DNA from: Artocarpus heterophyllus
Taxonomy: Eukaryota; Streptophyta; Magnoliopsida; Rosales; Moraceae
DNA length: 64,000 nt
Assembly: GCA_025403435.1 (NCBI GenBank)
Contig: CM046332.1
Span: 9,913,903-9,977,902, forward strand
Direction: 5' to 3'
Positions within the stretch are counted from its first letter, which is position 1. Every line of letters begins with the position of its first letter. Position numbers and translations under genes: made by a program. The notes beneath the pieces are model-generated. The model saw only the letters and a program-made list of their open reading frames with translations, was not told where the DNA came from and searched no databases. This document shows positions 17,505 to 64,000 of this stretch, in pieces.

Positions 17505-17563
17505 GAAAGAAAAAAAAAGGAAAAAGAAAAGAAAAAGGGAAAGTAAAATTACTAATGGCTCAG

Positions 17564-17954: not shown

Positions 17955-17970
17955 ATGGCATCATAGCGGG
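17955..17970 (+). other. Primer-binding site, variant initiator-Met type
   Basis: ATGGCATCATAGCGGG follows the 5' LTR end. It resembles the common initiator-methionine tRNA site TGGTATCAGAGC with substitutions. Confidence 0.55.
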
Positions 17971-23535: not shown

Positions 23536-23536
23536 G

Positions 23537-23549
23537 GCAAGTGGGAGAT
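23537..23549 (+). other. Polypurine tract of copia element 1
   Basis: GCAAGTGGGAGAT lies between the RNase H stop codon and the TGTTGGG start of the 3' LTR. Confidence 0.85.
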
Positions 23550-35852: not shown

Positions 35853-36268
35853 AAATTTAGCAACGGAATGACCAAAATGAGATAAGTTGAATAGTTTAAG
35901 GGTGTAATTTATTACATTTAAAAATTCAAGAACCAAAATAAGATAAGTTATATAGTTTAGAGCCAAAAATGAAATTAACGTTAAAAGTTTGTATACCTAA
36001 ACTGTTTGAAACATCAATTGTAAATAATATTTTAAATTTAAAAACCTTAACATACTAAGATTTATAATGTAGTTATTTTTACTTTTTTTTTTTAACTATT
36101 GAAAGTTTTACATGTTTGTTATCAGTTAATCAATAGAACAACTTGGAACCAAATTACAAACGGGATTTACTCCAAAGGATTAAACAACCCGCCCACGGTT
36201 CAAAACAAGGGGGCCCCGCTCTCTTTAAGCTATGGAATCCCCCTCTATTCTTTTTCCCATCACACACT
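35853..36268. other. Right flank of hAT and upstream region of SNRNP27
   Basis: After the duplication come two copies of an ACCAAAAT(A/G)AGATAAGTT unit (35871 and 35932) that match the unit left of the hAT. The 100 bp before the SNRNP27 ATG is GC-richer and probably holds its promoter and 5' untranslated region. No clear TATA box is seen. Confidence 0.5.
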
Positions 36269-42899: not shown

Positions 42900-42959
42900 A
42901 ATCTCCACCCCTAAAAGAAATTTCGCCCTCGAAATTTACAACTCATCTAAAAAACAAAA

Positions 42960-45312
42960 CAAATGCGGATACAATTCCCGCATACTCGACTCTAGTTCCC
43001 AAGTGGCTTCATCAACCCCATGATGCTGCCACACGACTTTTACCAACGGTATCTCACGACGACGCAAGCTAATCACTTTCTAGTCGATAATCTGAATCGG
43101 CACTTCTTCGTACGTCGTATCCTCTTGAACCTGCACATCGCGAAACGAAACTATCTTACTCTGCTCAGGTGGACACTTCCTAAGCATTGACACATGAAAT
43201 ACATCGTGAACATGAGAAAGTTCGGGCGGAAGATCAAGCCGATAAGCGACCACACCAACACGCTGAGTGATCTCGAACGGCCCAATATACCTCGGTGCGA
43301 GCTTCCCACTCACTCCGAACCGCATAGTTCCCTTACGAGACGATACCCTCAAGAGAACGAAATCTCCAACCGCGAACTCTAAAGGTTTACGTCTCCTATC
43401 CGCGTAGCTCTTCTGTCGACTCTGAGTTGCCCTCAACCGAGCTTGAATCACCGCGACTTTCTCGTTGCTATCACGAATCTCATCCGGCCCAAGAATAACC
43501 CTATCTTCCGGCTCGGCCCAACACACAGGTGATCGACACGGTCGCCCATACAACGCCTCAAACGGTGCCATGCCAATGCTCGCTTGATAACTATTGTTAT
43601 ACGCGAACTCCGCCAGATGCAAACATTGCTTCCAATTCCCGCCGAAGTCCAACGCACAGGCACGCAACATATCCTCGAGAATCTGAATAACCCGCTCAGA
43701 CTGCCCATCAGTCTGAGGATGAAACGCCGTACTGAAGTTCAAATCCGTACCTAAAGCCTTCTGAAAACTCCTCCAGTACTTAGCATTAAACCTGGTGTCT
43801 CAATCAGAGGTGATGGACAAAGGAACTCCATGCAACCTCACAATGTTCTGCATATACAACTCCCCGAGAACCTTCCTAGAACACGTCGACCTAAACGGAA
43901 TGAAATGCGTCGATTTCGTCAACCTGTCGACCACAACCCAAACTGCATCGTGCTGCTGCTCCGTCCTCGGCAATCTTGTGAGAAAATCCATCGTCACATG
44001 CTCCCATTTCCACCCTGGAATAGGAAGCGGCTGAAGCTGACCTGCAGGCTTCTGATGCTCGGCTTTCACCTGAAGACACGTCGAACACTTGGCCACGTAC
44101 TCTCGAACATCTTTCTTCATGCCTCTCCACCAATACTGCCTCTTCAAATCACGATACATCTTGGTGCCCCCCGGATGAATAGCGAACTAAGACCTATGAG
44201 CTTCGTCCAAAACGGCTTTCGTCACCTCGGCAATAACTGGAACTGCAAGACGCTCCTGGAAGTACAACGATCCATCTGCATGCACGCTCCATTCCTTGAA
44301 CTGCTCCCCGTTATGAATCCGTGACCAAATCCCCTGCAAATGCCGATCCTGCCACTGACTTTGCTTCACCATCCGAACAAGAGCTGGAGTCGCTTCCACA
44401 TGATACACCGAAACTCGATCACAATCTTCATGATACCGTAGTCTAAACTCGATCACTGTCGCATCCCTGCTCTAGTCCTCAAAAACCAAACAAGCTAGAA
44501 TCCCTGAAGACTTCTTGCTAAGCGCGTCCGCGACCACATTAGCTTTCCCGGGATGATACTGCAACGCAAAATCATAATCCTCCATATACTCGATCCATCT
44601 ACGCTGCCTCAGATTAAGATCCCTCTGAGTGAACAAATATCTCAAACTCTTGTGATTGGAGAAGACCTGAAACGACGCTCCATACAAGTAACATCTCCAA
44701 ATCTTCAACGCGTAAATCACCGCCGTAAGCTCAAAATCATGAGTAGGATAATTTCGCTCGTGAGGTCGTAGCTGTCTCGATCCGTACGCAACCACATGTC
44801 CATGCTGCATCAACACGCATCCAAGTCTGCGCCCTGAAGCATCCGCATAAACCTCATACGGCTCGTCACTGCTAGGAATAACCAACACTGGAGCTGAGGT
44901 CAACCGGTTCTTCAATTCCTGAAAAGCAAGCTCACAATCTTCATTCCACTCAAACCTGACATTTTTCTTGATCAATCTCGTCAACGGAGCTGCAATCTTC
45001 AAAAAATCCTTTACAAATTTCCTGTAATATCCAGCAAGACCCAAGAAGCTGCGAATCTCCTGCTACATTCCTTGGTCGTTCCCACTCCAATATAGCTTCA
45101 ATCTTGGACAGATCCACAGAAATACCATGCTCCGAGATAACATGACCCAGAAACTTGACCTCAGTTAACCAGAACTCACACTTTTCCCTCTTAGCATACA
45201 ACTAGGTGCTCCCGCAGGGTCTGAAGCACGATCCAGAGATGCTGCTCATGCTCCTCCCAAGTCTTAGAATACACAAGAATATCATCGATGAACACGATCA
45301 CTAACGTTGGAA
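42960..45312 (-). pseudogene. Tekay-like pol: RT end, RNase H, integrase
   Basis: From high to low coordinates: the reverse-transcriptase motif VFIDDILVYSKT near 45290; KCEFWLTEVKFLGHVISEHG (45100-45195); the RNase H region [10 protein letters not shown] to [14 protein letters not shown] (44472-45044); integrase zinc site and core with WWRGMKKDV, CSTCLQVK, MDFLTRLP and FHPQTDGQSERVIQ (43080-44160); and a tail HGVDEATWELES (42960-43060). At least two frameshifts and several stops, including one after PLSITSD and one after QIID, break the frame. It would have copied and integrated the element. Confidence 0.85.
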
Positions 45313-45609: not shown

Positions 45610-47598
45610 TATTGGAAGAACGTTGCGCAGCGAAAATTTAAAAATTTTTGATCAGCGTATTTCCAAAACACAAGTTTGACATGTTATATGTATAAATTAG
45701 ATAGATCTTACTAACCTCTGTGTGCCGAAGAACCTCTGTAACATGTGTAGAGAAGTAACGTTTCAAAAGAGCCTTAACCAACAGGTCTTCTTTGCTATTC
45801 TCTATCCACAACCGGAGTGAGTGGGGGCTCACACGTACAGCTCTTCCACTGATGACTCTCCTTCCAACCAATAGAGAGAACCCAAAGCTAATGTTCGTGA
45901 TTTGTGAACAAAAGCTCTTAGGGAGTTTTCAGATGCTCACTAAAAGAGTATCACTCTTAATCTTTCAATTGATTTGAGTAAATCATGAGACTCACTCCCT
46001 TTTTATAGCCATTGGTCCTAGGGTCAGTCTTTATCAGATTAGGTCTCAAAAACTCGAAACAGAATCAAGTTTGGATCAATATCTGATAAGATCCATGTGA
46101 AAATGAGTAATCTTATCATTCGCTGATCGGCAGGCCGAATAGCTTGATCGGCAGGCTGAACTCCCGCGAAAAAATCTCCGCGAATCTTTTATTTTTCACC
46201 CGAGATTTTATAGGATAAAGTCTCAGTTTTGATTCAAATATCCCAATAGAAAAGTTATTTGATCAAAACAAACTTTATCAAGATAATCTATAAGAAAATA
46301 AATCAATTCACAATAATGCTACAAGTTTATCTTGATCTAATTTATTCAAAATTAAAACAACAGATAAACAAACAAGAATTATCTGATCGTAATAATTCAA
46401 CAAGTTTATCTTGAACTAATTTCTTACAAAATTAATTCAACCGATAAACATACATGAATTATTTAATTCTTTCAAATTTTAAACCAATATGATAAATCCG
46501 ACATAAGTCACCAATTATTGGAAAAGCACGCCGTGTCGTTACAGGATTTTGTGAGCTAGCAAAGGGGACTAAAATGGACCTATAAAGTTTAAGCTCATGA
46601 TAATTATAAAACCCAATATTTCAGATATACATTTCACAATTATCAACTCCAACGCTACTCCACTAAAAGCTTGGAGCTGCACTCTCGAACTTTGTAGAAT
46701 TACGAAGCTCGTATAGCTAAGTCTCCATGACATATCATAGTGTATCGTATCCCCATATGAAAATCCATAATCGGCTTAAGAACAAGTTCTGTCTTACCTT
46801 CCGGATTATTTTTATCTTACGTTCCATTGTTTCACCATTAGAAAACTTACTATCCAAAGATAGTATACCATTCGGTTACACTTATTTATCCAAATGGTTG
46901 AGCGCTCCAGTTTTCCAATTACAAGACAACGTATATAAGAGGATATCATTACTCCTAAAGAAGAGCTATGGATTCCATATCTATGAATAACAAGTCTACG
47001 CTATCAAGAGTCATGCCTCCAACGTACCGGCATGCATACCACTATTGAGATGTGGGTGTCACCCTTTAGCACATCAAAAAACACAAGTCGAAACAATGGG
47101 CCTACTATTCATCTCAAGATTAAGATACAATACAAATGATTGTCTAAAGTGAATCGATTTGTCGAGACAGAATTATTTATCCAAATCAATTCACTTTATG
47201 TCCCGATCCAACACATCGTCACCTATGACAACATGCCAAAGTTTGTATTCATGGAGACCAACTCCGATGGTCAAGACAAACCATCTCCCAAAAGGGATAT
47301 AGACAACATAACAATCTTTACATGAATAAAGCGCCCAACTTTATTCCCTTGATTGCGGATCATATGTTTTAGACCATCACCTTAAGAATTGTGTCTTCTG
47401 CATAATCAGTCCATCATATGCCCCATTCTTAAGGTTTAGATTGACGGTCTCAGACTATTGTTTGCTTAACATACATTCAACAAATATGAACGTAAAGAGG
47501 ACAAGATTTGGTATATATAAATGAATAAATTCTTTATTGATAAAAATGTTTCCAAAAACGTATTACATTTTTACTCCTTAGGGCATACATGTCTAACA
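45610..47598 (-). repeat. 3' LTR of copia element 2
   Basis: About 1.99 kb. It matches 53220-55205 closely and contains a TATA box (minus strand, near 45998-46008) and GATCGGCAGGCCGA-type palindromes at 46124-46160. Confidence 0.9.
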
Positions 47599-47611
47599 AT
47601 CTCTCACTTGC
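47599..47611 (-). other. Polypurine tract of copia element 2
   Basis: Minus-strand GCAAGTGAGAGAT directly precedes the TGTTAGACATG start of the 3' LTR. Confidence 0.8.
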
Positions 47612-47612
47612 A

Positions 47613-50600
47613 CTAAGTGAGTAAATACAACAAATTTTGCATTCCCATAGCATCCACATGCCTCTCGAAGACTCTACCAATAAGTGTCTTCGTAAATGGA
47701 TCAGCTAAATTGTCCTCTGACGCGATCTTGCACACCGTGACATTCCCGCCCTCAACGAAGTCCTTTATCACATGATACTTTCGATCAATATGCTTACTCT
47801 TCTTGTGAAATCTTGGTTCCTTAGCATTAGCTACCGCCGCACTGTTATCACAGTACAGTGATACCGCTTTATCCATACCAGGAACTACCTCAAGATCCCC
47901 AAGGAACTTACGGAGCCACACTGCTTCTTTTGAAGCATCACTAGCCGTCACATACTCGGCCTCCATCGTTGAATCCGAAGTGCAATCTTGCTTCGCACTT
48001 CTCCAACTGATGGCACCCCTGCCCAGAGTAAACACAAACCCCGAAGTCGATTTCCTAGAATCCAGACAGGATTGAAAAACCGAATCAGTGATCCTAGAGG
48101 AGTTAAATCCTCACCCGAATACACAAGCATATACCCTCGAGTCCTTCTCAGGTACTTGAAAATATGCTTTACCGCAACCTAATGGTTCGGTCCTAGATCC
48201 GCCTGAAATCGACTTACAATCCTGACCGCATAGCTAATATCCGGTCGTGTGCAAAGCATGACATACATGAGACTACCCACTGCCAAAGCATAAGGCACCT
48301 TCTTCTTGTATTCTCTTTCTTCATAAGACATTGGAGAGTCTTTCTTAGAAAGAGTAATTCCAGACCTAGATAGTTGCCCACCTTTCTTGGAATTCTACAT
48401 TGCAAACCTCCTGAGAATTTTATCTATGTAGCCGGCCTGTGACAAAGCTATCATTTTGTTCTTCCTATCCCAAAAGATCTAGATACCGAGAACAAAATTA
48501 GCCTCACCTAAGTCCTTCATGGCAAACTGCTTGGTCAACCATATTTTGACCGATGACAACGCCCCAACGTCATTGCCAATTAGCAGAATGTCATCTACAT
48601 AGAGTAGTAGAAAAACCACCTTCTCATCTTTAATGTGTTTGTAAATACATAGTTCATCCACATTTTGTGAGAACCCATAAGTCTTGATCACTTGATCAAA
48701 CCTTATGTTCCAAGAACAGGAAGCCTGCTTAAGTCTATAAATTGACTTTAGTAGCTTACAAACCTTACCCTCTTGACCCGCGACCTTGAACTCTTCTGGT
48801 TGTTCCATATAAATGGATTCATCAAGATAGCCATTCAGAAAAGCCGTCTTGACATCCATCTGCCAAATCTCGTAGTCGAGAGTGGCAGCTATAGACAAGA
48901 GAATCCGGATGGACTTAAGCATGGCTACAGGTGAAAAGGTTTCCTCATAATCGATTCCTTCCTTTTGCGTATAACCCTTAGCTACTAGTCTAGCCTTAAA
49001 GGATTCGACCTTTCCATCCACTTCTCTTTTCCTCTTGTAGATCCACTTACACCCTATGGGTTTTACCCCTTCGGGAAGATCCCCAAGCTCCTACACCTGA
49101 TTAGTCTCCATAGACTTCATCTTTATGTTCATGGCCTCTGTCCAGAGTCTTGAATCAACATCCTCCATAGCTTCTGCGTGAGTATAAGGATCTCTGTCAT
49201 GTTCATCTGGTTCAACCAAGAAGACCTCCCTATTGAACATATACCTCTCAGGTTGACGCTCGATCCTCCCACTACGCCGAAGCCCCTAAGATTGTTGTTC
49301 AGGTTTGTTTGGTTTTCTACACCGATCGTAATGGTTTCGTTCGGAACCTCTAGAGTAAACGGATCACCCCTTAACTCCTCAAGCACCACTTTGCTTTGAG
49401 GTTTAAAGTCGTTCATGTAACTGTCCTCATGGAAAGTTGCATTAGTTGAAACCACAACTTTATTTTCCTCTGGGTTATAAAAATAACCCCCTTTAGTCTC
49501 TTTTAGATATCCTACAAACTTCTAAACGTACTTCCAACTTATTCGGATCCTTAAACAGGACATGAGCTGGACATCCCCATATGCGAATATGGTTTAAGGA
49601 TGTCTTCCTTTTTGTCCACAACTCATGAGGAGTTTTAGGGACCGATTTTGAAGGCACATTGTTCAAAAGATAACATACGGTTTGTAGTGCATATCCCCAA
49701 AAGGATAAAGGCAATGATGAATAACTCATCATGGACATAATCATGTCCAACAAAGTCCTATTCCTTCTCTCTGCTACGCCATTCTGCTACAGAGTGCCCG
49801 GCCCAGTCAAATGGGATAAAATCCCATTCTCTAACAAGTGTCCCAAGAACTCATCAGAAAGGTATTCCCCACCTCGATCAGATCGAAGTGCCTTTATGGG
49901 TCTACCCAATTGCTTTTCCACTTCAGCCTGAAACTCCCTGAAGTTGTCAAAAGTTTCGCTTTTGTGGCGCATCAGGTACACATACCCATATCTTGAGTAA
50001 TCGTCAATAAAAGTGATGAAGTACTCATACCCTCCTCGTGCCCGGATGTTCATCGGTCCGCAAACATCACTATGCACAAGTTCTAAAACCCCTTTGGCCC
50101 TATTGCCCTTACACCCGTATGGTCTTTTGGTCATTTTACCCTCCAAACAAGATTCACATTGAGGTATAGATTCCACCTTTAAGTGACTTAAAGGTCCATC
50201 CCTTACCAACCTTTGAATCCTATTCAGGTTAATATGGCCAAGGCACAAATGCCAAAGATAAGTCTTATTAGAGTGAGAAGTTTTAAGTCTTTTTGAGTCA
50301 TTATCATTTATCTCAGCATTAAGCAACAAGTCCATCTTAGGTTTGATAAAATATAGGTTATTTTGCATCCATCCAGAACAGATAAAAGATTTGTTTTTAC
50401 GAATCACCACTTTTTCATTAAAAGATACCATGTAGGAGTCTTTAAATAAACAAGATACAGAAATTAAATTCCTTTTAAATTTAGGAACATAAAAACAATC
50501 TTGCAAAATTAAATTCTTATAATTATCAAAATAAAGATGGACATCTCCCATTGCTTCCGTTGAGACCAAGGATTCATCGCTAATCCTCAACATGAAGTCT

Positions 50601-51691
50601 TTACGTAGCAGACTTCTCGTTTCTTTGAATACCTGCAGAGAAACACAAACATGATTAGTTGCACCGGAATCTATGACCCAGATATCATTGGATTCCTCAA
50701 CCAAACAAGTTTTTAAATATAGAAGATCACACCTACCTCCTCTAGAAAGGAAGTCCTTGCAATATTTCTTGATATACCCGACCTTACCACAGAAGAAGCA
50801 CTTAAGCTTCTTTGGGTTCTTCTTCTTCCTCTTCTTGCTCTTGATAGCAGTAGGAATAGAAGACTTCCCGTTCTTGGCCCATTGCTTCTTTCCACTCCCT
50901 GAGTTAGGATTGGAACCAGAAGCAGCTACCATGTTGGCCTCACCACCAGCAGGAGACTCCCTAATTAGCAGTTTGAACTCCTATAACTGTTTCATCAGTT
51001 CTGTCAAGGTCATATCCCATCTATTGCTTAAATTAAAAGTAGCTCCAAAACGGAATAAATTTCTTAGACAGAGTCTCAAAGACCATAGTCATCTGAGCTC
51101 CAGCATCGATGTCGGCCCATTGGTTTGAGTCTCAACGAGGTAACCCATGACCAACATCATGTGCTCCTCTACAGATGTCCCCGGTCTCTGTCTACAGTTT
51201 AAGAGTTTTCGAAGCCCCTTTTGCCGCTTTGTTATGGCTTGGCCTCCAAACATATCCTCAAGATTATCCAAGATTTGCTTCGCAGTCTCATAATCCTGAT
51301 GTTGAGCCTGTAGCACGTTGTTCATGTTGGCCATAATATAGCAGCAGGCCTGATCATTAGCATCTTTCCAGCGATCGTACGCTTGGAATTGCTCATTACT
51401 TGAGTTTCCCGTAGGCTCGAGAGGACAAGGGGTTGTCAGTACATATTTCAGTTTCTCAAAGGATAGGACGATATCCAGGTTCCGTTTTCAATCGTTATAA
51501 TTCTCACTGGTTAATTGGTTTTTGTCAAGTATCGATGATAAAGCATTTTTAGACATTTTTAATCTACAATGAAGAATCATGTACCAAACATAAGCAAACA
51601 TATAATAATAATTTAGTAAGATAACACAATCATGTAAAATCATACAAATGTGTTTATGTGTCAAAACCTTGAAAATATCACAACCGTACAA
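47613..51691 (-). pseudogene. Copia element 2 gag-pol, many breaks
   Basis: The minus-strand gag starts near 51555 (SKNALSSILDKNQLTSEN) and meets a stop where a tryptophan is expected (51488). The zinc knuckle near 50780 reads CFFCGKVGYIKKYC, with tyrosine in place of the histidine ligand. Then come protease (WVIDSGATNH), pre-integrase HLCLGH and CESCLEG, integrase HSDVCGPM and SDRGGEY, reverse transcriptase (48479-49021: KARLVAKGYTQ, YVDDILL) and RNase H (47613-48035: EAEYVTASD, SLYCDNSAAVANA). Stops include TAG near 49785 and 48480; frameshifts lie near 51110, 49510 and 49250. It is inactive. Confidence 0.9.
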
Positions 51692-53203
51692 CGATAATTC
51701 CCAACTCAGAATTCAACAAGCTCCTACGGGAGTCATGCCAAATTCAATCAGGAACACGGATCCCCTCTGGATTAATATATGCCATCTAGGACCCGTATGA
51801 TCCAGCATATATTAATAATCGTTTCTTTGGCCATTAATTTTATTAACAGAGTTCCTAGGGGAGGTTAATAATAAAATTAACGTGAGTGTATAACCATCGT
51901 TTCAATATTTTATCCATGATTTATAATCACCACCTAGGGGTGTGCAACCATAAATTATACTAAAATACCTTATCCTTTCAGAAATCCAATCTGGTACATG
52001 ATAGAAATCCTTTCCTAAGGGTCGGGACCACCATGTTCTGCATATGGACCAACGATGGAGGCCTTAGGTCCTCTCTTCGAAAACCTTCTCCCACTCAATC
52101 TTTTGAAATCAAGGTTTAATTTTAAAATTATGCATGAACAATTTTAATATGAGCGGCGCTCTTTATTCTATATGACATGTTATCAATATACATGGTAAAT
52201 CATATTATAATGCAGACAAGCAAAGCAATCAAGCAAAGCTACAAGCAAAATAATAATAACCGTAATATTATGGTTCTATCCTAGAGAATAGAAAACTAAG
52301 ATTACAAGAGAATAATCAAGACATTTATCGATTCTTCATCCTTGAATCCTCAAGCCGTATCCTTCTTCATGTAATACCCATCTTCAAGTCTTCAATCTCG
52401 TATGAATCAAATACTTCATATTTTCGGTCATATACAAATTTAATGTTTCTCAGAATCATCTCAAAAATAAAATTAAAATTGCACTAGAAAAAATGCACCT
52501 TTTCTGAAAATTTTTCAGCTCTCGGTCGGCAGGCCGATCTAGGTGATCAGCCTGTCGATCATGTTTCATTGGCCTGTCAATCCATGAAAGTTCGGCCTCA
52601 GTTCGGCCTGTCGGCGGAGTACCCCAATTTCTGCCCCACTGTCTTCCTGTCGGACCACACGTCCTGCCTGTCGATCTGTGAACATCGGCCTGTCGAACTG
52701 TGACGTCTGGGATGCCGACCGAGCAGTAATCTTTCATTCCAGAAAATACAATTTTAATGCAATTCATCAATTTTATTTTCAACAATTCAAAAACATAAAA
52801 TTAGAGACTCAGGAAATACCTGGGGGCACCATCATCTTTCTTCTATATCCGTCTTCTCCGAATAATAATTTAATTACAAAAATTCTTATAAATTTAAAAT
52901 TAAATAATAATTCCTAGACGGAGATGAAGGTCCGCCTTCAAATTACATGAAAAACCTAGATATACATTCTAACCTCTAAGGAACCATAACCGGTATTAAT
53001 TAATTAATAAATAATTAAACAACGATTTAATCAACCATAATTAATTAATAAACATTCACCATATAATACATGACAACATATAATTTATAGAAACCTAGAG
53101 TGTCAACTCTCTATAAAATTCAATTCAAGCATAGGAGTGATTAAGATCACAAAATTTATGCATATAACATGATCACAAACTCATAAATTTATATAAAAAA
53201 TGA
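51692..53203 (-). other. Leader of copia element 2
   Basis: About 1.5 kb between primer site and gag with no coding family. It contains an array of CGGCAGGCCGA/CGGCCTGTCGA-type motifs at 52522-52710, matching those in the LTRs. Confidence 0.65.
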
Positions 53204-53217
53204 TGGCTCTGATACCA
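53204..53217 (-). other. Primer-binding site, initiator-Met tRNA
   Basis: Minus-strand TGGTATCAGAGCCA follows the 5' LTR end by a short spacer. It is the usual primer site of plant copia elements. Confidence 0.85.
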
Positions 53218-53219
53218 AT

Positions 53220-55205
53220 TGTTGGAAAAACGTTGCGTAGCGGAAATTTAAAAATTTTTCATCAGATTATTTTTCAAAACATAAGTTTGACATGTTATAT
53301 GTATAAATTAGATAGATCTTACTAACCTCTGTGTGCCGAAGAACCTCCGTAACCTGTGTAGAGAAGTAAAGGTCTAGAAGAGCCTCAACCAACTGTTCTT
53401 TGCTATTCTCTATCCACAACCGGAGTGAGCGTGGGCTCACATGTACAGCTCTTCCACCGGTGACTCTCCTTCCAACCAATAGAGAGAACCTAAAGCTAGT
53501 GTTCGTGATTTGTGAACAAAAGCTCTCAGGGAGTTTTCAGATGCTCACTAGAAGAGTATCACTCTTAATCTCTCAATTGATCTGAGTAAATCATGAGACT
53601 CACTCACTTTTTATAGCCATTGGTCCTGGGGTCAGTCCTTATCAGATTAGGTCTCAAAAACTCAAAACAGAATCAAGTTTGGATCAATATTCGATAAGAT
53701 CCGCGTAAAAACACGTAATCTTATCACTCGCTGATCGGCAGGCCAAACACGTCATTCGGCAGGCCAAATTCCCGCGAAAAATCTTCGCGATTCTTTTATT
53801 TTTCACCCGAGATTCTATAGGATAAAGTCTCAGTTTTGATTCAAATAACTCAATAGAAAAGTTATCTGATCAAAACAAACTTTATCAAGATAATCTCTAA
53901 GAAAATAAATCAATTCACAATAATTCTACAAGTTTATCTTGATCTAATTTGTTCAAAATTAAAACAACCGATAAACAGATAAGAATTATCTGATTGCAAT
54001 AATTCAACAAGTTTATCTTGAACTAATTTCTTACAAAATTAATTCAACTGATAAACAAACAAGAATTATTTAATTCTTTCAAATTTTAAACTAATCTGAT
54101 AAATCCGACATAAGTCACCAATTATTGGAAAAGCACGCCGTGTCGTTACAAGATTTTGTGAGCTAGCAAAGGGGACCAAAATGAACCTATAAAGTTCAAG
54201 CTCATGATAATTATGAAACCCAATATCATAGATATATATTTTACAATTATCAACTCCAACGCTAGTCCACTAAAAGCTTGGAGCTGCACTCTCGAACTTT
54301 ATAGAATTACGAAGTTCGTATAGCTAAGTCTCCATGACATATCATAGTGTATCGTATCCCCATATAAAAATCCATAATCGACTTAAGGACAAGTTTTGTA
54401 TTACCTTTCCGATTATTTTTATCTTACGTTCTATTGTCTCACCATTAGAAAACTTACTATCCAAAGATAGTATACCATTCAGTTACACCTATGTATCCAA
54501 ATGGTTGAGCGCTTCAGTTTTTCAATTACAGGACAACGCATATAAGAGGATATCATTACTCCTAAAGAGGAGCTATGGATTCCATATCTATGAATAACAA
54601 GTCTACGCTATCAAGAGTCATGCCTCCGACGTACCAGCATGCATACCACTATTGAGATGTGGGTGTCACTCTTTGGCACATTAAAAGATACAAGTCGAGA
54701 CAATGGGCCCACTATTCATCTCAGGATTAAGATACAATACAAATGACTGTCTAAAGTGAATCGATTTGCCGAGACAGAATTATTAATCCAAATCAATTCA
54801 CTTTATGTCCCGATCCAACACATTGTCACCTATGACAACGTGCCAATGTTTGTATTCACGTAGTCCAACTTCGATGGTCAAGACAAACCATCTCCCAAAA
54901 GGGATATAGACAACATAACAATCTTTATATGAATAAAGCGCCCAACTTTATTCCCTCAATTGCGGATCATATGTTTTAGACCATCACCTTAAGAATCGTG
55001 TCTTCTGCATAATCAGTCCATCATATGCCCAATTCTTAAGGTTTAGATTGGCGGTCTCAGACTATTGTTTGCTTAACATACATTCAACAAATATGAACGT
55101 AAAGGGGACAAGATTTGGTATATATAAATGAATAAATTCTTTATTGCTAAAAATGTTTCCAAAAACGTATTACATTTTTACTCCTTAGGGCATACATGTC
55201 TAACA
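53220..55205 (-). repeat. 5' LTR of copia element 2
   Basis: About 1.99 kb, reading on the minus strand from TGTTAGACATG (55205) to TTTTTCCAACA (53220). It is bounded on the right by the second CCCTC duplication and has a minus-strand TATA box near 53608-53616. Confidence 0.9.
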
Positions 55206-55210: not shown

Positions 55211-55549
55211 CCCTTGTCAATCCCTTTTATATCCAAATAAAATGACACTCTATTAAGTAAAACGATACCAAACAACATGTAAGCTACCTATCAGAACGCC
55301 ATCCTTGCATTTGAAGCCACTGAATTGGACTTACCTAGTGGAAAGTAACCTCCAAGTTTGAGGTCTATATGTGGATTGAACCTTCTCTAGTGTACAACAA
55401 TTTTCGAGGATTATTATAGCTAGCAATAACCTTATCGAGCATCTTCAATGTAATGCTAAATTAATGTGCTAATTACAAATTTTATATTGGAGTGTAAAAA
55501 AAAAAAAAAAACTCTGCAATGCTATGCAATGTTATTTTTAATGTTAAAT
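55211..55549. other. Unassigned relic right of copia element 2
   Basis: Continues the relic at 45313-45604 once the copia element is removed. A minus-strand GATATAAAAGGG near 55225-55240 could be an old TATA box, so the pair may be parts of one older LTR. There is no coding signal. Confidence 0.35.
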
Positions 55550-57866
55550 TGTAGCACCCGTTATTTTTTTAGTGAGTATTAAGGTAATTAAATTAATTAT
55601 TAGTATGCCAATTAAAAATTTGTTTCATTTAAAATCTATTTCACAATACTTATTTCTACTTATTTTTAGAATTTCCTAAAATTTCCTATACTCATTTAGT
55701 ATATTTACCAAAATGTCTTGGAACTTCTAATTAATTACGAAAATGTCATTTGGCATTATTTGAACTAAAAGTCTCCGGAAGAGACTTACTCACCTACTCC
55801 TCAATTATTTCCTTACCTCTCATTTAGATCAAATCACTCTCTCTCTTTCCCTCATGTCTCCCTGCTCCTTTCTCTTTTCTTTCATTTCCTCTTCATTTCT
55901 CTTACACGGTGAGATAAATTAGAGGAAGACCAAAGGAAAACTCAAGTTGTTCTATCACAATCTTCACAAACAACTAACCACCAGCTCGAAGATCAAGGAA
56001 ACTCAAGGATTTCCAAGTTCAAACCACTTTTGAGTTAAGTTTTTAAGGTTATATTTTTAAAACTTTAACTTTGATTTTAAGTTGTATTTTGGTATGAAAA
56101 TTTGTGAGAAATGTATTTTTGATGTTTGTGAATGGTTATACATCATTTTTAAGCTTAGAAACATGTTACAAACTTGAATTTTGATTGAGAATGAGAAAAA
56201 AAAAATCAAGAACGCGTATGTGCATTTTTTCAGAGTTTATTTCATTTTTCTGGCTTTTAGTCGTTTTTCCAAAACAGAGATTAAATAAAAATAGAAGCAA
56301 ATTTTAGCTTCAGGTGGGATTTGAACCCGCCACCTTAGGGATAAATAGAGGAGGCCAAACCACCAAGATAATGATGGTTATTTGATAACCTATATTTCGA
56401 AAATAATAAATAGTTCTTTATAAAAAGTCTATAATTTCAAATAATTTTATTTTAATGAATATTAAACTTTTCAATTATTTTATTTCTAATTATTTTATAA
56501 TCGTATTATTTATTTAAAAAAATTAATTTAACATATTTCGTACCAAAATAAAATTTGTATATTTTAATTTTATTGTTATTTTAGCATTTACTAAAATTAA
56601 GTTAGAAAAGTGATATTCATAATTTTAGACGTTAATGGTTATGACACACTAATAAAAATAAATGATAAACTGACATAATTAAAAATTAGGATTTAAGTTA
56701 AAGTATGATTATTTTATATGTTTTAGGATAATAGCATGCTTGGAGCTTACGTGGTGAATTGTGTAAGTTGGGAATTGTCAGTGGATGTTTGTAAAGAGGT
56801 AGGGATTCTATTACTCATCTTTTGTGTGGTTTTTATGAAATTAAAATTGATTGTTTTACCTCAAGATATATATATCTATGTTGAACTGCTATTATATGAG
56901 TATCACATGTGAAACTATGACATGGACTCGTCGTGTATTGTACGATGAGGAACATAATGAATTGACACATGTTATAAATTGAGAAGTATGGTTAAAAAAA
57001 TTGACTATAAATAATGATTGAATATAGAGAAATGATGAGACGTGAAAGGGGCGGCGGTTACATCCTTGGACACGAATACCCTAAAAGGTAAAATAGGGAA
57101 AAGGTGATGACGCTTCCTTGGGTCGAAAGTCCCAAAACACACTGTACAGGAATCGACTTAGTGAGGACTCGGGGCTTGATGTCTCCTCACCGGAACACCC
57201 TTGGAATGTTTAGTGGGTGATCAAGCGCGTCCATTTGGGTTTCGATGAGTTGAGTGATACTCTAGTGAACGTAGATACCTAGGAATAATAATGAACTGTA
57301 ATATTTGTATATATGTATATGTATGAAACTTGGTAATGATTAACTATAATATCCACAGAATATGATTATAATAAATCTCATAATCTGGATAATGGTGAGT
57401 ATTAACTAACCATGCAGGTTTTAATGTGGTAATGATAAAAACCTAAAGGTGAGTAATGGTTTTCCCTACTGAGCATATTATTGCTCATTCCCTTATATTT
57501 TTATCTTTTCAGGACCAACTAAGTGAGGTGGCTACGAGAAAAATACTTGAGGAAGCTATGGAGCTATATTACGTTGGGACTGCTTCAATTGCTAAGAACG
57601 TTCTTCATGATAATGTAAGCATCAATTGCTACTTTCTATGACTGTATTAAAATGCGTTGAAGGTTAAAATGATGATGACGACAGTTTATATTATTAAATT
57701 TAAGGTGCTACATTAAACTGTGGTTTAATTATCATTTATATTTTTATTTTTGATTTGAGAGTTTTCATTTAAACCCCGAGCAACTTTATTATTGAGGTTT
57801 TACTTTTATTTTTGATTTTTATTTTATTTTATTAAAAACTGTTAACCCCCATATAGGGGCATTATA
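55550..57866 (+). repeat. 5' LTR of the cargo element
   Basis: Starts TGTAGCACCC and ends near GGGGCATTATA, just before the primer site. It contains a CT-rich stretch (55830-55910), a tRNA-like B-box on the minus strand (56317-56327) and a TGAGC/GCTCA hairpin at 57470-57487. Confidence 0.75.
56317..56327 (-). promoter_or_regulatory. tRNA-like B-box in LTR
   Basis: Minus-strand GGTTCAAATCC matches the Pol III B-box/T-arm consensus, set in GGTGGCGGGTTCAAATCCCA. The same stretch is in the 3' LTR at 63037-63047. It may be a remnant of a tRNA gene or tRNA-derived SINE absorbed into the LTR. Confidence 0.4.
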
Positions 57867-57869
57867 GAA

Positions 57870-57890
57870 TTTTTGGTATTAGAGCCTAGG
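57870..57890 (+). other. Primer-binding site of the cargo element
   Basis: TTTTTGGTATTAGAGCCTAG resembles the initiator-Met primer site TGGTATCAGAGC with one change, directly after the LTR end. Confidence 0.7.
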
Positions 57891-59488
57891 TTCGGTTAAC
57901 CTAGGGAGTGTAGCACCACTTTAAAAAAATTTGTTTTTGAGTTGGTTTTGAAGCTGAATTTTCATTGTCATCATCAAGATGAACCTTCAGATTGATTTAT
58001 ACAATCCAGAAGGATGTCACATGGAAAAGCTCTAGAATGAAAATATTAACGGTTATGTGAGTACGATAATTATATAAAAGGAAAGTATTAATAGTTATGA
58101 GGGAATGAAAATTATATGGAATGTGTTTATAAGTAGAATGCTTATGAGAGATTCGTATAATATTAGGATCTATATGCATATCTAATTTGTATAAAATGAT
58201 GAGAAATTCATATAGATACGAGGATTTAAGAGCCTTTTATCTCGTGAAAAACAATAAGAAATATAAGGCTTGATTTATTGATTTCAAAGTTTCGCATATA
58301 TGTGTCAAATTTTTTGTAATTGATTCAAACCTAAGTAATGATTATGAGTGGATTCGGTGGAGCACATAAGTGTCAATAACTTTTCTTGTAAGTTCTATTT
58401 ACTTGAGGAATATGAGATAAGTTAGGAATCTATGGTATTGAATCTTGAGTGAGATAAACGTTAGACTTTTGGTCTGTTGAGACTGTGTAAAGGCAAGAAT
58501 GCATGAATTTCAAGGTTGGAATATTTTGTTATGTACATTGTATTTAAGTGTATCAGTGAAACTTTATGAATAGATGTAATGTGAAAATGACCAATAAGAG
58601 TTTCCTTAAGTAAATCATAATACTTAAGGCACCTATAATAATTTTGGATAATTACGATAAAAGGTTTAACTTCTAGATGTTTAGATGTGAATCTTTTTGT
58701 TACTTAAGGTTTTGTTATATGAGGAAATTAAATATTGTATAGGTGGAATTGTGGGGATTGTAGATGTTCCTAAGTAGTAACATCAAATGTCTTTGTTCAT
58801 TGATATGGTCTATGTTGGAATACATAAATTGTATTGATTTTAAGGTTAGTCACATTCAAAACCCCTGGTAGTAATGATGATGAATCCATTGATAGATGTT
58901 GAGTATTAGGGATAACATATGGGTGTACGCATTATTCAATGAGGTTTTGATTAAAACAAATTATTTGAATTGCTAGAAGATTATGTTGTTATGAAATGAT
59001 TTTAAATACCATTCAAGGAGGTCCCTGATTGTTGTTAAATTAGACTTGTTGTTCATAGTTAATTTTATCTTTAGTAGGCTTTGAATTAGGCTTAAGATCT
59101 GTACAAATTGGTTTTCAATTTTATGTTTATTATTTAACTCGTTCTAAATGTGTTAAGGCCCAAAACAACCTGACCTATTTCAACTTAGAACATTTGGGCC
59201 TAGTCCAAATCCTAAATCAGTTTGATTCACACCGTCTCTTCCACGTGGCCTCTATACGTGTCATTTACAATGGTTTAATCATTGTTTACATATACGTCTA
59301 CTGTGTATAGGAGCTTGTTTCTCTGAGCTTACTCTCTCTCTCTTAATTTGTTATTCTCTATCTAAATGGTAAATCATTTTCTTTTTCCCTAGAAATTCTT
59401 CTTTCCCTCTAAAAGAAGAAGGAATTCTAGGATTCTGCAACTTACTATCTCAATTTTTTCTTCCTATTTACTCTTCTTTCATCTCATC
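57891..59488 (+). other. Non-coding leader of the cargo element
   Basis: About 1.6 kb with no recognisable gag or other protein. The last 300 bp has promoter-like character: a TTGGGCCTAG-type motif near 59180-59215, CACGTGG near 59240 and a strongly CT-rich leader from 59320 to the ATG at 59489. Confidence 0.5.
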
Positions 59489-60010
59489 ATGTACCCAAAG
59501 TACCAACACCTGAGAAAGTATTTCCCATCACTCTCCCAAAAGATTCTCAAAAAGAAATACAAGGCTAGAATCAGTCGGTTGTTGATTCTTTTGTGTTTTG
59601 GCATCCCTTGTGATGTGAGAATGTTGATAGAAGGAAAGATCCATCCGAGTGATTTCAATCAAGATGTCGGTTTACTAGGAACGGGTACCAGTCGTAGTGC
59701 AATGAAAAGAAGAGCTCGTGCCATCACAGTCACTTGTAACAAATGTGGAAGACAAAATTATAATGGTAAATGTACTTCACCTGGTTATATGTCTACGAAT
59801 AGAGAGGATAAAATAAGGTTTTGCAGGGATGCGCTTTCAAAGGAGAACTTGGATAGCATCCATCTTTCTCTTCATGGTCACCCTAGTGGATATGTTCAAG
59901 GAGCTATTTTTAAACTCTGGCCTAAATTTTATGCAGAAAGACAACGCCTTAGAAATATGGTATTTCTAGATCCTGTTTGCCAAGCCATAAGAAACCTGGA
60001 TGGGGAATAA
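59489..60010 (+). CDS. Zinc-finger cargo ORF, copy 2 (intact, unknown)
   Basis: An uninterrupted 173-residue frame. A hydrophobic helix-like stretch lies at residues 29-40, an arginine/lysine patch (KRRARA) at 73-78, directly followed by a cysteine finger (Cys83, Cys86, Cys95, perhaps Cys112), and a C-terminal region with HPSGYVQGAIFKLWPKFY near 131-148. I do not recognise the exact family. A basic patch followed at once by a CX2C finger in a small protein is also the layout of nucleic-acid-binding/silencing-suppressor proteins of some Betaflexiviridae, so a virus origin is possible but unproven. The diverged copy at 9502-10043 shows it is a real, conserved protein. It lies on the sense strand of the LTR element, upstream of a LOG-like pseudogene. 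Confidence 0.6.
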   Translation: MYPKYQHLRKYFPSLSQKILKKKYKARISRLLILLCFGIPCDVRMLIEGKIHPSDFNQDVGLLGTGTSRSAMKRRARAITVTCNKCGRQNYNGKCTSPGYMSTNREDKIRFCRDALSKENLDSIHLSLHGHPSGYVQGAIFKLWPKFYAERQRLRNMVFLDPVCQAIRNLDGE

Positions 60011-60628
60011 GTCATCGCTCTATAAAGGTTGTTTAGTCTTTGCTTATTTGAAATAGTTTGAGTTGATGTTCAATAGTTTGTGTTTTTCTTTTACTCAGAA
60101 TATTTGCCTTTGTGGTCAAAATAATTGTGATTATTAGATTGATACAGTAAGTGGTAATATCTCATTTAATTTATGGTTTTCTTAAATATATATATAATAA
60201 AATATATTATCTTATCAGACACGTCACATAAGATACAGTAACATGTTTGAATTTTGAAAACTTATCCAGATATTTCAAGATTTGTGTCTCAAATTTCAAA
60301 AGTTCTACAGTATTTATCGTTTATATTGAATTTTTAGACTCGATGTATATTTGTCAAAAAGTCTGCAGTTGTGTCAAGAGGGTCTTCTGTCAAACCATTC
60401 TCAATTGTCAAAAGGTATACCATTAGAGTCTAATCTTTTTTAAAAAGTGAATCAGATTTTCTGTAAACTATCAATCACCTTATCTTACTTTCTTACCCGC
60501 ACAAGATTTTGTTTAAATCTTTGGATTGCCTTTTTATTTCCCACTCATCTGTCTCTTTAGTCCTTTTTGCGTATCCCTCATCCTTAAAATCTCATGTAGA
60601 ACCCGAAGTCTAAGTGGAGCAGACATAA
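60011..60628 (+). other. Spacer between cargo ORF and LOG-like sequence
   Basis: AT-rich, no open frame of note. It contains repeated TGTCAAAA motifs near 60350-60420. It may be untranslated sequence of either cargo. Confidence 0.45.
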
Positions 60629-61302
60629 AGCAATCACTTATATAAACCAAATATATCTACCTCCCAGTCTACCAAGAAAATAAAGAATGTCTGTGTCTTT
60701 TGTGGTTCCAGCCTTGGAAAAGATAAAGCCTATGTAGAAGCAGCAAAACACTTAGGGCAATTCCTAGCACGCAGGAAGATTAACATAATTTATGGGGGTG
60801 GTAGTTTAAAAATGATGGAAAATATGACGCTAGCAGCTAGGTCTAGTGATACCATAGCTGTAGGAATTTGGCCTCATACTCTAGCTAAAGGAAACCTTTA
60901 TAAGGAAACCATTGGTAAGAAAAAAGGAGTAAGAAGCATTCCTAGAAATTTTAAAGCCATAATCAATAATTCTGATGCTTTTATAGCATTACTTGGTGGT
61001 CTAGGTACTCTTGAGGAAATATTCGTAGTTGCTTGTTAGCAATTATTGGGCTTTTATTCCAAACCCTTGGGACTACTGAATGTAAATGGTTTTATGATGG
61101 TCTTTTGAAATTTCTAGATTACGCTGTGGAAGAAAACATCATTGTAGAATCAGAGAGACAAATCTTTATTACTGCTTCAATAGTTGAGGAATTGATAGAT
61201 AAGATGCAAATCATACATCTGAAATCCGACACTGCAATATCCAAGCTTGAATGGGAAAGGGAAAGCCGGGAGCAGCCTATTGATTTGAATCTCCATCTGT
61301 AA
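60629..61302 (+). pseudogene. LOG: LOG-type cytokinin-activating enzyme, intronless pseudogene
   Basis: The translation gives KNVCVFCGSSLGKDKAYVEA, then INIIYGGGSLKMM, NSDAFIALLGGLGTLEEI, and after a stop KPLGLLNV and DYAVEENIIV. This is the LOG family (cytokinin riboside 5'-monophosphate phosphoribohydrolase), which releases active cytokinin bases in the cytosol. The diagnostic PGGxGTxxE motif reads LGGLGTLEE, so its proline is lost. A stop lies at 61037-61039 and a frameshift near 61090. The frame opens at 60629 without an ATG before 60812. Plant LOG genes normally have several introns; here none is seen, so this is probably a retrocopy carried by the LTR element. Confidence 0.85.
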
Positions 61303-62226
61303 TCTTTTGGTTTTATCTATGGCATGTGGGCATGTGTGTCCATATTTCGTGTGTCACGAATAACCGTTTACCTTGTATTCTATATTTCTTATGGCATGTC
61401 GTTGTTCAATCTTTTAGATTTATTGAGCCTAATACCAGGATGGCTAGATACGGAGTACTTGATATTCTCGAAACACGTCCCACTTAAGGTCTGAACTTTT
61501 GTTTATCGATGTTTTTGTATGCTATAAGCATACATGATATGGATAGCTGGTATACGGAGTGCCTTGTACTCTCGAAACGTATCTGTATCATGTCTGTAAT
61601 GTGTAGTATTCTGTTAATGTTTTGTAGAAGACTAAAGTTAACTATGGGGATACTTTGTAGAAAATATGAGTGTGTTATATGGATGAAATGTTTCAGTGTT
61701 ATAAAGGTAGATATTTAATTAAAAAAAACCTGTCGAGTTGGCTATAATTATGAGACTCCCTCTAATATCTCTATATATAAGTTTAATGTATGATTTTGAA
61801 TAAAAGCACTTGTGTTATATATTTTATGATTATGTTTTAGTTTATTGCTTGGAATATAAGATTTATCATTCTTGACTTTTCTTTGCTTAGAAAAGAAAAG
61901 GAACCCAAAGATGAAGTATGTAGAATTTCTCGAGCAATGTCCCTAATGTGATTGTAGATTACAGTCTATGAATAGTGAAGGACTGAAAAAAAATGGTATG
62001 ATCGGCATGTGTGCTTTTCTGATTAGATTCCTAAACCATTATGCGATTTAATCAATGTGGAACCGACTAGAAATACTCTTGTTGAGGGATTTAGAAACTA
62101 GAGTGAATTCATATTTTAAGTATATAAGTGGAGATATGGTAACTTACATTTGAGGAGAAACAACATTGACGGTTTAGAGCCGAAAGAAGAATCATAACGG
62201 AATTGTGATTTTTACTAGTATGATTT
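61303..62226 (+). other. Non-coding 3' interior of the cargo element
   Basis: No coding family. A motif TACGGAGT...CTTG.TA.TCTCGAAAC occurs twice, at about 61449 and 61553, about 104 bp apart. Confidence 0.5.
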
Positions 62227-62239
62227 AAGGGGGTAGAGC
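62227..62239 (+). other. Polypurine tract of the cargo element
   Basis: AAGGGGGTAGAGC directly precedes the TGTGACACC start of the second LTR. Confidence 0.75.
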
Positions 62240-64000
62240 TGTGACACCTGTTATTTTCCTAGCGGGTATTAAGGTAATTAAATTAATTATTAGTGTGCCA
62301 ATTAAAAATTTGTTTCATTTAAAATCTATTTCACAATATTTATTTCTACTTATTTTTAGAATTTTCTAAAATTTTCTATACTTATTTAGTATATTTACCA
62401 AAATGTCTTAGAACTTCTCATTAATTACGAAAATGCCATTTGGCATTATTTGAACTAAAAGTCTCCGGAAGAGACTTACTCACCTACTCCTCAATTATTT
62501 CCTTACCTCTCATTTAGATCAAATCACTCTCTCTCTTTCCCTCATGTCTCCCTACTCCTCTCTCTTTTCTTTCTTTTCCTCTTCATTTCTCTTACACGGT
62601 GAGATAAATCAGAGGAGGACCAAAGGAGAACTCAAGTTGTTCTATCACAATCTTCACAAACAACTACTCACCAGCTCAAAGATCAAGGAAACTCAAGGAT
62701 TTTCAAGTTCAAACCACTTTTGAGTTAAGTTTTTAAGGTTAGATTTTTAAAACTTTAACTTTAATTTTAAGTTGTATTTTGATATGAAAATTTGTGAGAA
62801 ATGTGTTTTTGATGTTTGTGAATGATTATACATCATTTTTAAGCTTAGAAACATGTTACAAATCTGAATTTTGATTGAGAATGGGTAAAAAACAATCAAG
62901 AACTCGTATGTGCATTTTTTCAGAGTTTATTTCATTTTTCTGGCTTTCTGTCGTTTTTCCTATAAAGGGGAAACAACATGTCGTTTTTCCAAAACAGAGA
63001 TTTAATAAAAATAGAAGCAAATTTTAGCTTCAGGTGGGATTTGAACCCCCTACCTTAGGGATAAATAAAGGAGGCCAAACCACCAAGACAATGATGGTTA
63101 TTTGATAACATATATTTCGAAAATAATAAATAGTTCTTTATAAAAAGTCTATAATTTCAAATAATTTTATTTAAATGAATATTAAACTTTTCAATTATTT
63201 TATTTCTAAATATTTTATAATCGTTTTATTTATTTTAAAAAGTTCATTCAACATATTTTGTACCAAAATAAAATTCGTATATTTTAATTTTATTGTTATT
63301 TTAGCATTTACTAAAATTAAGTTAGAAAAGTGATATTCACAATTTTAGTACGTTAATGATTATGGCACACTAATAAAAATAAATGATAAATTGACATAAT
63401 TAAAAATTAGGATTTAAGTTAAAGTATGGTTATTTTATATGTTTTAGGACAATAGCATGCTTGGAGCTTATGTGGTGAATTGTGTAAGCTGGGAATTGTC
63501 AGTGGATGTTTGTAAAGAGGTAGGGATTCTATTACTCATTTTTTGTGTGGTTTTTATGGAATTAAAATTGATTGTTTTACCTCAAGATATATATATCTAT
63601 GTTGAACTACTATTATATGAGTATCACATATGAAACTATGACATGGACTCGTCTTGTATTGTACGACGAGGAACATAATGAATTGACACATGTTATAAAT
63701 TGAGAAGCATGGTTAGGAAAACTGATTATAAATAATGATTGAATATAGAGAAATGGTGAGACGTGAAGGGGACGGCAGTTACGTCATTGGACACGAATAC
63801 CCTAAAAGGTAAAATAGGGGGAAGGTGATGACGCTTCCTTGGGTGGAAAGTCCCAGAACACATTGTACAGGAACCGTCTTGGTGAGGATTTGGGGCTTGA
63901 TGTCCCCTCACCGGAACACCCTTGGAATGTATAGAGGGTGATCAAGAGCGCCCATTTGGGTTTCGATGAGTTGAGTGATACTCTATTAAACGTGGATACC
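62240..64000 (+). repeat. 3' LTR of the cargo element, cut by window end
   Basis: Follows 55550 to about 57290 closely for 1.76 kb, with scattered substitutions and a roughly 30-bp insertion near 62960-62990 that duplicates GTCGTTTTTCC. The remaining 0.6 kb lies outside the window. Confidence 0.85.

What the first reader, a model, noticed from the sequence alone, without database searches (positions are those of the whole stretch)
55550..64000. An LTR retrotransposon whose interior is cargo: a zinc-finger ORF plus a LOG retrocopy
Seen: LTR, primer site, polypurine tract and second LTR in correct order, with no gag-pol and two non-retroviral coding segments between them, both on the sense strand. 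Known: LTR elements capture host genes only rarely, and LOG controls cytokinin activation. Inference: the element is a mobilisable carrier of foreign genes, one of them still intact.
Basis: partly seen in the sequence, partly recalled or inferred. Interest (0 to 1): 0.9.

Follow-up and report, generated by a model that had tools for sequence, protein, structure and literature searches.

The report
Gag-less retrotransposon carrying two accessory genes
A plant jumping element without its own copying enzymes carries two extra genes, one resembling a plant-virus RNA-binding protein and one a hormone-activating enzyme, and younger copies elsewhere in the same genome still have both genes open.

Summary
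The element is a complete insertion: TSD TAAAT, LTR 55550-57866, tRNA-iMet-type PBS, PPT, second LTR 62240-64589 (ending 589 bases outside the window), no gag-pol. It is one copy of a large family: 7 of 7 other fetched copies with both LTRs carry the same two genes in the same order, and two young ones (LTRs 99.90% and 99.67% identical) have both genes open. The 'zinc-finger ORF' belongs to a plant family of ~180-aa proteins, most of which match Pfam Carla_C4 and Viral_NABP, the nucleic-acid-binding proteins of flexiviruses; the window's own ORF is below the cut-offs. In a contig that I read as plant contamination it lies just downstream of a Ty3/gypsy integrase. An Athila-like gag-bearing element of this genome carries this gene and then LOG. 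Between diverged copies dN/dS is 0.15 for this gene and 0.20-0.29 for LOG. The window's LOG is dead. So this is not a fresh capture of host cargo but an older two-gene module on two LTR backbones. LOG in plant gypsy elements was already reported; the answered paper searches showed no virus-like partner. A silencing-suppressor function is inferred, not shown.

The parts
55545..55549 (.). 5' target-site duplication TAAAT (3' copy at 64590-64594, outside the window)
55550..57866 (+). 5' LTR (TGTAGCACC...CATTATA)
57874..57886 (+). primer-binding site TGGTATTAGAGCC, initiator-Met tRNA type with one mismatch; TGGTATCAGAGCC in the young copies L056 and L057
   Evidence: the tRNA assignment is recalled
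57923..59480 (+). leader region without ORFs of 80 aa or more, shared by the other copies
59489..60010 (+). open ORF, 173 aa, flexivirus NABP-like protein (basic stretch KRRARA plus Cys-rich motif CNKCGRQNYNGKC)
60653..61302 (+). LOG (cytokinin riboside 5'-monophosphate phosphoribohydrolase) intronless copy; here a pseudogene: start codon changed, TAG stop at 61037, frame shift near 61090
62227..62239 (+). polypurine tract AAGGGGGTAGAGC
62240..64000 (+). 3' LTR (TGTGACACC...), continues outside the window to 64589 (C6:9978491)

Best explanation
The element is a member of a large non-autonomous LTR-retrotransposon family. It has the cis signals of a gypsy element of chromovirus (Tekay-like) type (LTRs, iMet PBS, PPT) but, in place of gag-pol, two accessory genes: a flexivirus NABP-like protein and a LOG-type protein. 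Steps shown: insertion with TSD; family-wide gene order; young copies with both genes open; purifying selection between diverged copies, strong for NABP and weaker for LOG. Steps inferred: transcription from the LTR; packaging, reverse transcription and integration by gag-pol supplied in trans by an autonomous gypsy element; the NABP-like protein binding the element's RNA or siRNAs and weakening host RNA silencing, as its viral relatives do; LOG raising active cytokinin in subfamilies that keep its catalytic motif, and doing something else or nothing in the window's family, where the motif is changed; and transfer of the module between LTR backbones, since the same gene pair sits on an Athila-like element of the same genome.
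For: TSD and structure. Same gene order in 7 of 7 other fetched copies with both LTRs. ORF search: 150 scored of 5776 candidates, 147 of 150 without a stop (best scorers only). Among 29 loci L027-L055, picked by NABP score, one full-length open frame for NABP in 28 and for LOG in 22 (an earlier count of 23 for LOG had missed an insertion). NABP dN/dS 0.15 and LOG 0.26 between L056 and L059; LOG 0.20 and 0.29 against the Athila-like L058 (neutral p 2e-7 or lower for each of these four). Shifted-frame NABP control 0.89-2.95 in 10 comparisons, against 0.13-0.35 in frame. Carla_C4 in 42 of 60 and Viral_NABP in 41 of 60 family members at E 1e-3 or better. Foldseek against viral models: 28 of the first 31 rows are flexivirus proteins, the other 3 unnamed. 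3' end of L056 aligns with the chromovirus at window 42.9 kb, 67 of 91 columns, E 2e-8 in that one comparison. NABP behind a gypsy integrase in L001. Athila-like gag, NABP and LOG in L058.
Against: The window ORF is below the Pfam cut-offs (Carla_C4 17.7 bits vs 20.9; Viral_NABP 16.3 vs 23), and L056's ORF has no match at E 1e-3. Both structure models are poor (mean pLDDT 65.6 and 60.8) and no Foldseek row reaches E 0.001. The window's own 3' end gave no match to the chromovirus in the search where L056's did. No autonomous partner with matching LTRs was identified. LOG in the window family has lost the GLMG loop and the MHxR arginine, so cytokinin activation by it is unlikely. LOG constraint against the 7 older copies is modest: 0.36-0.50, next to 0.48-0.84 in its shifted frame; the non-coding I2 stretch read as codons gives 0.56-1.05 for the 6 of those copies (L021 included, L022 not) where it was found. 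Shifted-frame controls were not run for L058 and L059, where dS is about 0.9-1.8 and the ratios are rough; NABP L056-L058 gave no ratio because dS was saturated. No expression data were available.
Confidence: 0.68

Rival explanations
1. Ordinary non-autonomous element with passive cargo: the two frames look open only because the family expanded recently from a few source copies.
For: The two complete young copies have LTRs 99.90% and 99.67% identical. Copies decay after insertion: ratios between old copies reach 1.05 for NABP (20 pairs, 0.31-1.05) and 0.87 for LOG (21 pairs, 0.45-0.87); LOG has a stop in 7 of 7 older copies. For LOG the in-frame values are close to its controls.
Against: Open copies of diverged subfamilies (L056 vs L059, dS about 1) give NABP 0.15 and LOG 0.26. 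NABP is conserved over about 180 aa in several plants.
Confidence: 0.15
2. The ORF is a plant-retrotransposon zinc-finger protein that resembles viral NABPs only by convergence on a small Cys motif; it acts as a nucleocapsid-like RNA chaperone for the element.
For: Window ORF below the Pfam cut-offs; low-confidence models; no flexivirus sequence could be aligned directly.
Against: The Viral_NABP match in L001 spans 88 residues, beyond the Cys motif, at 34.1 bits vs cut-off 23. 42 and 41 of 60 members match the two viral models. Foldseek rows are often flexivirus proteins in a library of viral proteins in general: 31 of 50 and 7 of 15.
Confidence: 0.22
3. Two independent LTR insertions flank unique host DNA.
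For: None found.
Against: Matching TSD around the whole unit and the same interior in other copies.
Confidence: 0.01
4. The machinery in trans is Athila-type rather than chromovirus-type, and the family arose by replacing an Athila element's LTRs.
For: The same gene pair sits on an Athila-like element. A search with the L001 integrase gave 91 scored matches of 19298 candidates, some in open frames of 1788 aa.
Against: PBS is iMet type, not the TGGCGCC type of L058; the PPT/LTR junction of L056 matches the chromovirus.
Confidence: 0.2

Closest known systems
Plant Ty3/gypsy elements with additional ORFs between pol and 3' LTR (reviewed in PMC7264820)
   Same: Sense accessory genes in the 3' half, conserved across copies; the review names the stretch between pol and 3' LTR as the most frequent place.
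   Different: Here gag-pol is absent and the accessory genes are the only coding content found; one is virus-like, whereas the review says of antisense aORFs that they lack similarity to other TEs or viruses.
LOG/YgdH-bearing gypsy elements of Citrus and Populus trichocarpa (PMC9289625 section 12, citing Steinbauerova et al. 2011)
   Same: LOG-family domain inside a gypsy LTR retrotransposon.
   Different: That section mentions no NABP-like partner or gag-less derivatives; here LOG is paired with NABP and its catalytic loop is changed in the window's family.
Flexivirus NABP / cysteine-rich silencing suppressors (Pfam Carla_C4, Viral_NABP)
   Same: Profile similarity of family members, basic stretch before a Cys motif, similar size range.
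   Different: Encoded by retrotransposons in plant chromosomes, with a conserved C-terminal part (DPVCQFIRKLDGK in the family); no suppressor activity shown.
LARD and other non-autonomous LTR retrotransposons (recalled)
   Same: Long LTRs, PBS, PPT, no gag-pol, many copies.
   Different: LARDs have a non-coding interior (recalled); this has two genes.
Tekay-type chromovirus (name recalled)
   Same: PPT/LTR start of the young copy L056, iMet PBS type.
   Different: No integrase, reverse transcriptase or chromodomain in the family.

Membership tests
Non-autonomous LTR retrotransposon | Two LTRs with TSD, PBS and PPT | tested here: met
Non-autonomous LTR retrotransposon | No gag-pol | tested here: met
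   Window copy; L056 and L057. Gaps in other copies: Ty1/copia-like frames at C17 (5' LTR), C5 and C11 (judged by eye); no frame of 100 aa or more in the C2 gap or in the C17 3' gap
Non-autonomous LTR retrotransposon | Mobilised by an autonomous partner | not testable with these tools
LARD | Non-coding conserved interior (recalled) | tested here: not met
   Two genes, open in young copies and under purifying selection
Athila lineage | TGGCGCC-type PBS and Athila gag | tested here: not met
   Window family: iMet PBS, no gag. L058 in the same genome: PBS TGGCGCCGTTACCGGGGA and gag PF03732; the lineage name is recalled
Tekay chromovirus | pol with chromodomain | tested here: not met
   No pol. 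3' junction of L056 aligns with the chromovirus in the window, whose own Chromo match is weak (E 0.026, below cut-off)
Viral NABP (PF01623, PF05515) | Pfam score above the curated cut-off | tested here: inconclusive
   Window ORF below for both; L059 above for PF01623 (23.3 vs 20.9) and below for PF05515 (20.6 vs 23); L001 above for PF05515 (34.1 vs 23) and just below for PF01623 (20.4 vs 20.9)
Viral NABP (PF01623, PF05515) | Silencing suppression or nucleic-acid binding | not testable with these tools
   Needs a bench assay
LOG | LOG family by sequence (Pfam LDcluster4 / Lysine_decarbox) | tested here: met
LOG | Catalytic motif PGGxGTxxE plus MHxR arginine and GLMG loop (importance recalled) | tested here: not met
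   Window: LGGLGTLEE; L056 keeps PGGLGTLEE but has KMMV and IPKN; L058 and L059 keep GLMG, an arginine in place and PGGLGTLEE

The most novel reading that the evidence does not exclude
Plant LTR retrotransposons and flexiviruses share, by gene exchange in one direction or the other, an RNA-silencing suppressor gene. In rosid plants it forms, with a captured cytokinin-activation gene, a two-gene counter-defence and host-manipulation module that jumps between gypsy lineages and lets a gag-less element reach thousands of copies.
Probability: 0.33. Interest if true: 0.92.

Novelty: new variant of a known kind. Interest (0 to 1): 0.76.

Why it matters
Plants silence retrotransposons with small RNAs, and few retrotransposon-encoded counter-measures are known (recalled). 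A selected, multi-copy retrotransposon gene related to viral silencing suppressors makes the question 'do plant retrotransposons suppress RNA silencing in trans?' directly testable. It would also link RNA-virus and retrotransposon gene pools. The LOG partner raises the question of why a retrotransposon would keep a hormone-activating gene, and why one young family keeps the frame open after its catalytic motif changed.

Tried and rejected
Generic zinc finger or host transcription factor: not supported, the two best of three weak Pfam matches are viral. Host-gene capture unique to this locus: rejected. Copy at C6:3.84 Mb as an independent insertion: rejected, 99.5% identity runs past the 3' LTR into the flank. 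Gaps in other copies as their own gag-pol: not supported; frames at C17 (5' LTR), C5 and C11 look like nested Ty1/copia elements by eye, and the C2 gap and the C17 3' gap have no frame of 100 aa or more. Relatives in viral contigs: none confirmed; phage records: one row at E 0.5. tRNA and Rfam scans of the window: nothing. LOG in L001: no convincing match in the 1 kb after NABP. Structure models: too poor to prove a fold. Exact copy number: the pattern search did not complete; candidate numbers are unscored first looks. Literature: six paper searches failed by time-out, so the statement that the virus-like ORF was not seen in print rests and on the parts read of two papers.
Full report
WHAT IS THERE. 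The window holds a complete LTR-retrotransposon insertion. Direct repeats begin at 55550 and 62240. The 5' LTR is 55550-57866. The second LTR runs past the window; the neighbouring stretch C6:9977850-9979500 shows its end at window position 64589 and a 5-base duplication TAAAT on both sides. Seven bases after LTR1 comes TGGTATTAGAGCC, a primer-binding site of initiator-Met type with one mismatch (assignment recalled); the young copies L056 and L057 have TGGTATCAGAGCC. The polypurine tract AAGGGGGTAGAGC abuts LTR2. The LTRs are 93.96% identical (K2P 0.064, about 2.4-4.5 My at two commonly used rates, rates recalled). No ORF of 80 aa or more other than the two described lies inside.

THE TWO GENES. 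The ORF 59489-60010 (173 aa) has weak matches to Carla_C4 (E 0.0036) and Viral_NABP (E 0.01), both below their cut-offs. A search of 5.8 billion proteins gave 8 relatives at E 1 or better, one at 89% identity and seven at 44-51%. A search with their alignment gave 1015 at E 0.01 or better, of which the best 120 are listed. Six listed rows name a species: Hibiscus, Xanthoceras, two Populus, Acer and Rhamnella, on contigs of 16-78 Mb. Some clusters have tens to hundreds of members, which fits a repeat but may also reflect repeated sequencing. Of 60 members scanned, 42 match Carla_C4 and 41 Viral_NABP at E 1e-3 or better; the window member does not. Low-confidence models were compared with viral structure models. 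From the window ORF, 7 of 15 rows are flexivirus NABPs, suppressors or the 15-kDa protein. No row in either search reaches E 0.001. LOG (60653-61302) is intronless; here its start codon is changed and it has a stop and a frame shift.

A FAMILY, MOVED AS A UNIT. The first 651 bases of the LTR gave 43 matches in the 985-Mb genome, 40 of 2559 candidates scored. I fetched regions around some of them. At C9, C2, C17, C5 and C11 the interior has leader, NABP, LOG and 3' part in the same order between LTRs. [quoted passage not shown] The copy at C6:3.84 Mb is a segmental duplication of the window's copy. Gaps at C17 (5' LTR), C5 and C11 hold frames that look like nested Ty1/copia elements; the C2 gap and the C17 3' gap hold no frame of 100 aa or more. 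The ORF as query gave 5776 candidates; 150 were scored, each at 90% identity or more, and 147 of 150 have no stop. These are the best scorers, so the open fraction is not a fair sample. P0017 as query gave 5298 candidates; 150 of 150 scored matches show a single TAA, which fits the shorter C-terminus of this family. Two young copies are complete: L056 (LTRs 99.90% identical, TSD GTATG) and L057 (99.67%, TSD GAAAT), each with an open 173-aa NABP and 216-aa LOG. LTR divergences of the eight dated copies span K2P 0.001 to 0.122, so the family has been active over a long time.

SELECTION. Against L056, 10 copies give NABP dN/dS 0.13-0.35; the shifted frame gives 0.89-2.95. LOG gives 0.09-0.61 with shifted frame 0.30-0.84 over 10 comparisons; without the near-identical L057 pair it is 0.36-0.61 against 0.48-0.84. 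The non-coding I2 stretch read as codons gives 0.56-1.81 over 10 comparisons. So NABP stands well apart from its controls and LOG only a little. Binomial tests against neutrality: NABP p 1.6e-6 and 1.4e-8 against the two oldest copies tested and 1.3e-5 for the window copy; LOG p 3e-4 to 2e-3 in three comparisons. Between old copies the ratios are 0.31-1.05 for NABP (20 pairs) and 0.45-0.87 for LOG (21 pairs), as expected when copies decay after insertion. Within the 29 young loci pN/pS is 0.20 for NABP and 0.43 for LOG, but these loci were picked by NABP protein score, which biases NABP downwards. The strongest test uses diverged open copies: L056 vs L059, NABP 0.15 and LOG 0.26; LOG L056 vs L058 0.29; LOG L059 vs L058 0.20 (neutral p 2e-7 or lower for each); NABP L059 vs the first 137 codons of L058 0.15; NABP L059 vs L001 0.26, p 1.2e-6. 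NABP L056 vs L058 gave no ratio because dS was saturated, and no shifted-frame control was run on these pairs. One full-length open frame exists in 28 of 29 loci for NABP and 22 of 29 for LOG (this replaces 23, which did not see insertions). In the window family LOG has lost the GLMG loop and the arginine of MHxR; L058 and L059 keep them (their catalytic role is recalled). 99 of 120 listed LOG relatives end in LxLxL with at most 2 residues after it, a pattern like the EAR repression motif (recalled).

TWO BACKBONES. In L001, titled as a bacterial MAG contig and read by me as plant contamination, a gypsy integrase frame (PF17921, PF00665) is followed 192 bases later on the same strand by a 186-aa NABP frame scoring 34.1 bits for Viral_NABP. 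In this genome L058 has a TGGCGCC-type PBS, gag (PF03732), a weak protease match below cut-off, then a NABP with a frame break, then an open LOG. This is Athila-like (name recalled); the L001 integrase found no match in the fetched stretch. The window family instead has an iMet PBS, and the PPT/LTR start of L056 aligns with the minus-strand chromovirus at window 42.9 kb (67 of 91 columns, E 2e-8 for that small comparison); the window's own 3' end found nothing in the same search. The chromodomain match there is weak (E 0.026). L059 carries both genes but its LTRs were not fetched. So the gene pair rides on at least two LTR backbones. Two contig lengths (8723 and 4511) occur in both the NABP and the LOG hit lists; in a rough simulation two or more such coincidences among 23 and 33 contigs of 3 kb or more have a chance of about 0.004. 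This was noticed before it was tested, and equal lengths also occur among contigs too short for both genes (905 and 734), so it only suggests that the pair is linked in other plants.

HOW IT PROBABLY WORKS. Shown: complete insertions, gene order, young copies, selection on NABP and more weakly on LOG. Inferred: RNA from the LTR is packaged and copied by gag-pol supplied in trans. The NABP-like protein binds RNA and may protect the element from silencing, as related viral proteins do. LOG may raise cytokinin where its motif is intact. I put the retrotransposon and module part at about 0.9, the virus kinship at about 0.75 and silencing suppression at about 0.45.

WHAT IS KNOWN. PMC7264820 (text parts 1 and 2 of 3 read) reviews accessory ORFs in plant LTR elements. 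PMC9289625 (section 12 and passages read) reports LOG/YgdH domains in gypsy elements of two Citrus species and P. trichocarpa, citing Steinbauerova et al. 2011 (not read). A search for the two Pfam names and accessions found 2 papers, by their titles both on methylglyoxal genes; carlavirus with nucleic acid binding protein and LTR retrotransposon gave 0 papers; a wider search listed 7, seen as titles and abstract starts only. Searches were listings too. Six later paper searches timed out. So LOG in LTR elements is known; the virus-like partner, the gag-less form and the double backbone were not seen in print in these searches.

VERDICT. Observation confirmed. Interpretation partly supported: a real mobile unit, but with old accessory genes rather than a fresh host capture. 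Interest 0.76.

Noticed in passing
window 31661-35163 (+): A hAT transposase gene (PF14372 and PF05699 pieces) is split by a 2-kb repeat at about 32609-34640 that matches, inverted, the LTRs at 45612-47598 and 53222-55205: probably a solo LTR.
   Followed up: partly
window 45612-55205 (-): Ty1/copia element with 2-kb LTRs 93.4% identical, ending 344 bases before the finding.
   Followed up: partly
window 15940-25515 (+): Second Ty1/copia element with LTR blocks 96.4% and 89.7% identical and gag-pol frames.
   Followed up: no
window 42945-45044 (-): Chromovirus-type gypsy pol remnant (RNase H and Tf2-1-like SH3 domains, weak Chromo match).
   Followed up: partly
window 36143-36937 (+): SNRNP27-like host gene frame (PF08648), with long overlapping antisense frames.
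   Followed up: no
G000 C12:5310771 and 5316975; C15:8381143 and 8387769; C1:11396525 and 11403139; C22:23827117 and 23833354: Pairs of NABP copies 6.2-6.6 kb apart on the same strand: tandem elements possibly sharing a middle LTR.
   Followed up: no
G000, LOG hits: 150 scored of 5894 candidates, each a single block of 180 residues or more. A second group (matches to query about 3-198) lies on many chromosomes; one of them, L058, is the Athila-like element.
   Followed up: partly
L001: A bacterial MAG record (Candidatus Nomurabacteria) holds what I read as a plant retrotransposon fragment: contamination in a public genome.
   Followed up: partly
LOG relatives P0123-P0242: 99 of 120 end in LxLxL; the LOG structure alignments shown stop before this end, so whether ordinary LOG proteins have it was not tested.
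   Followed up: partly
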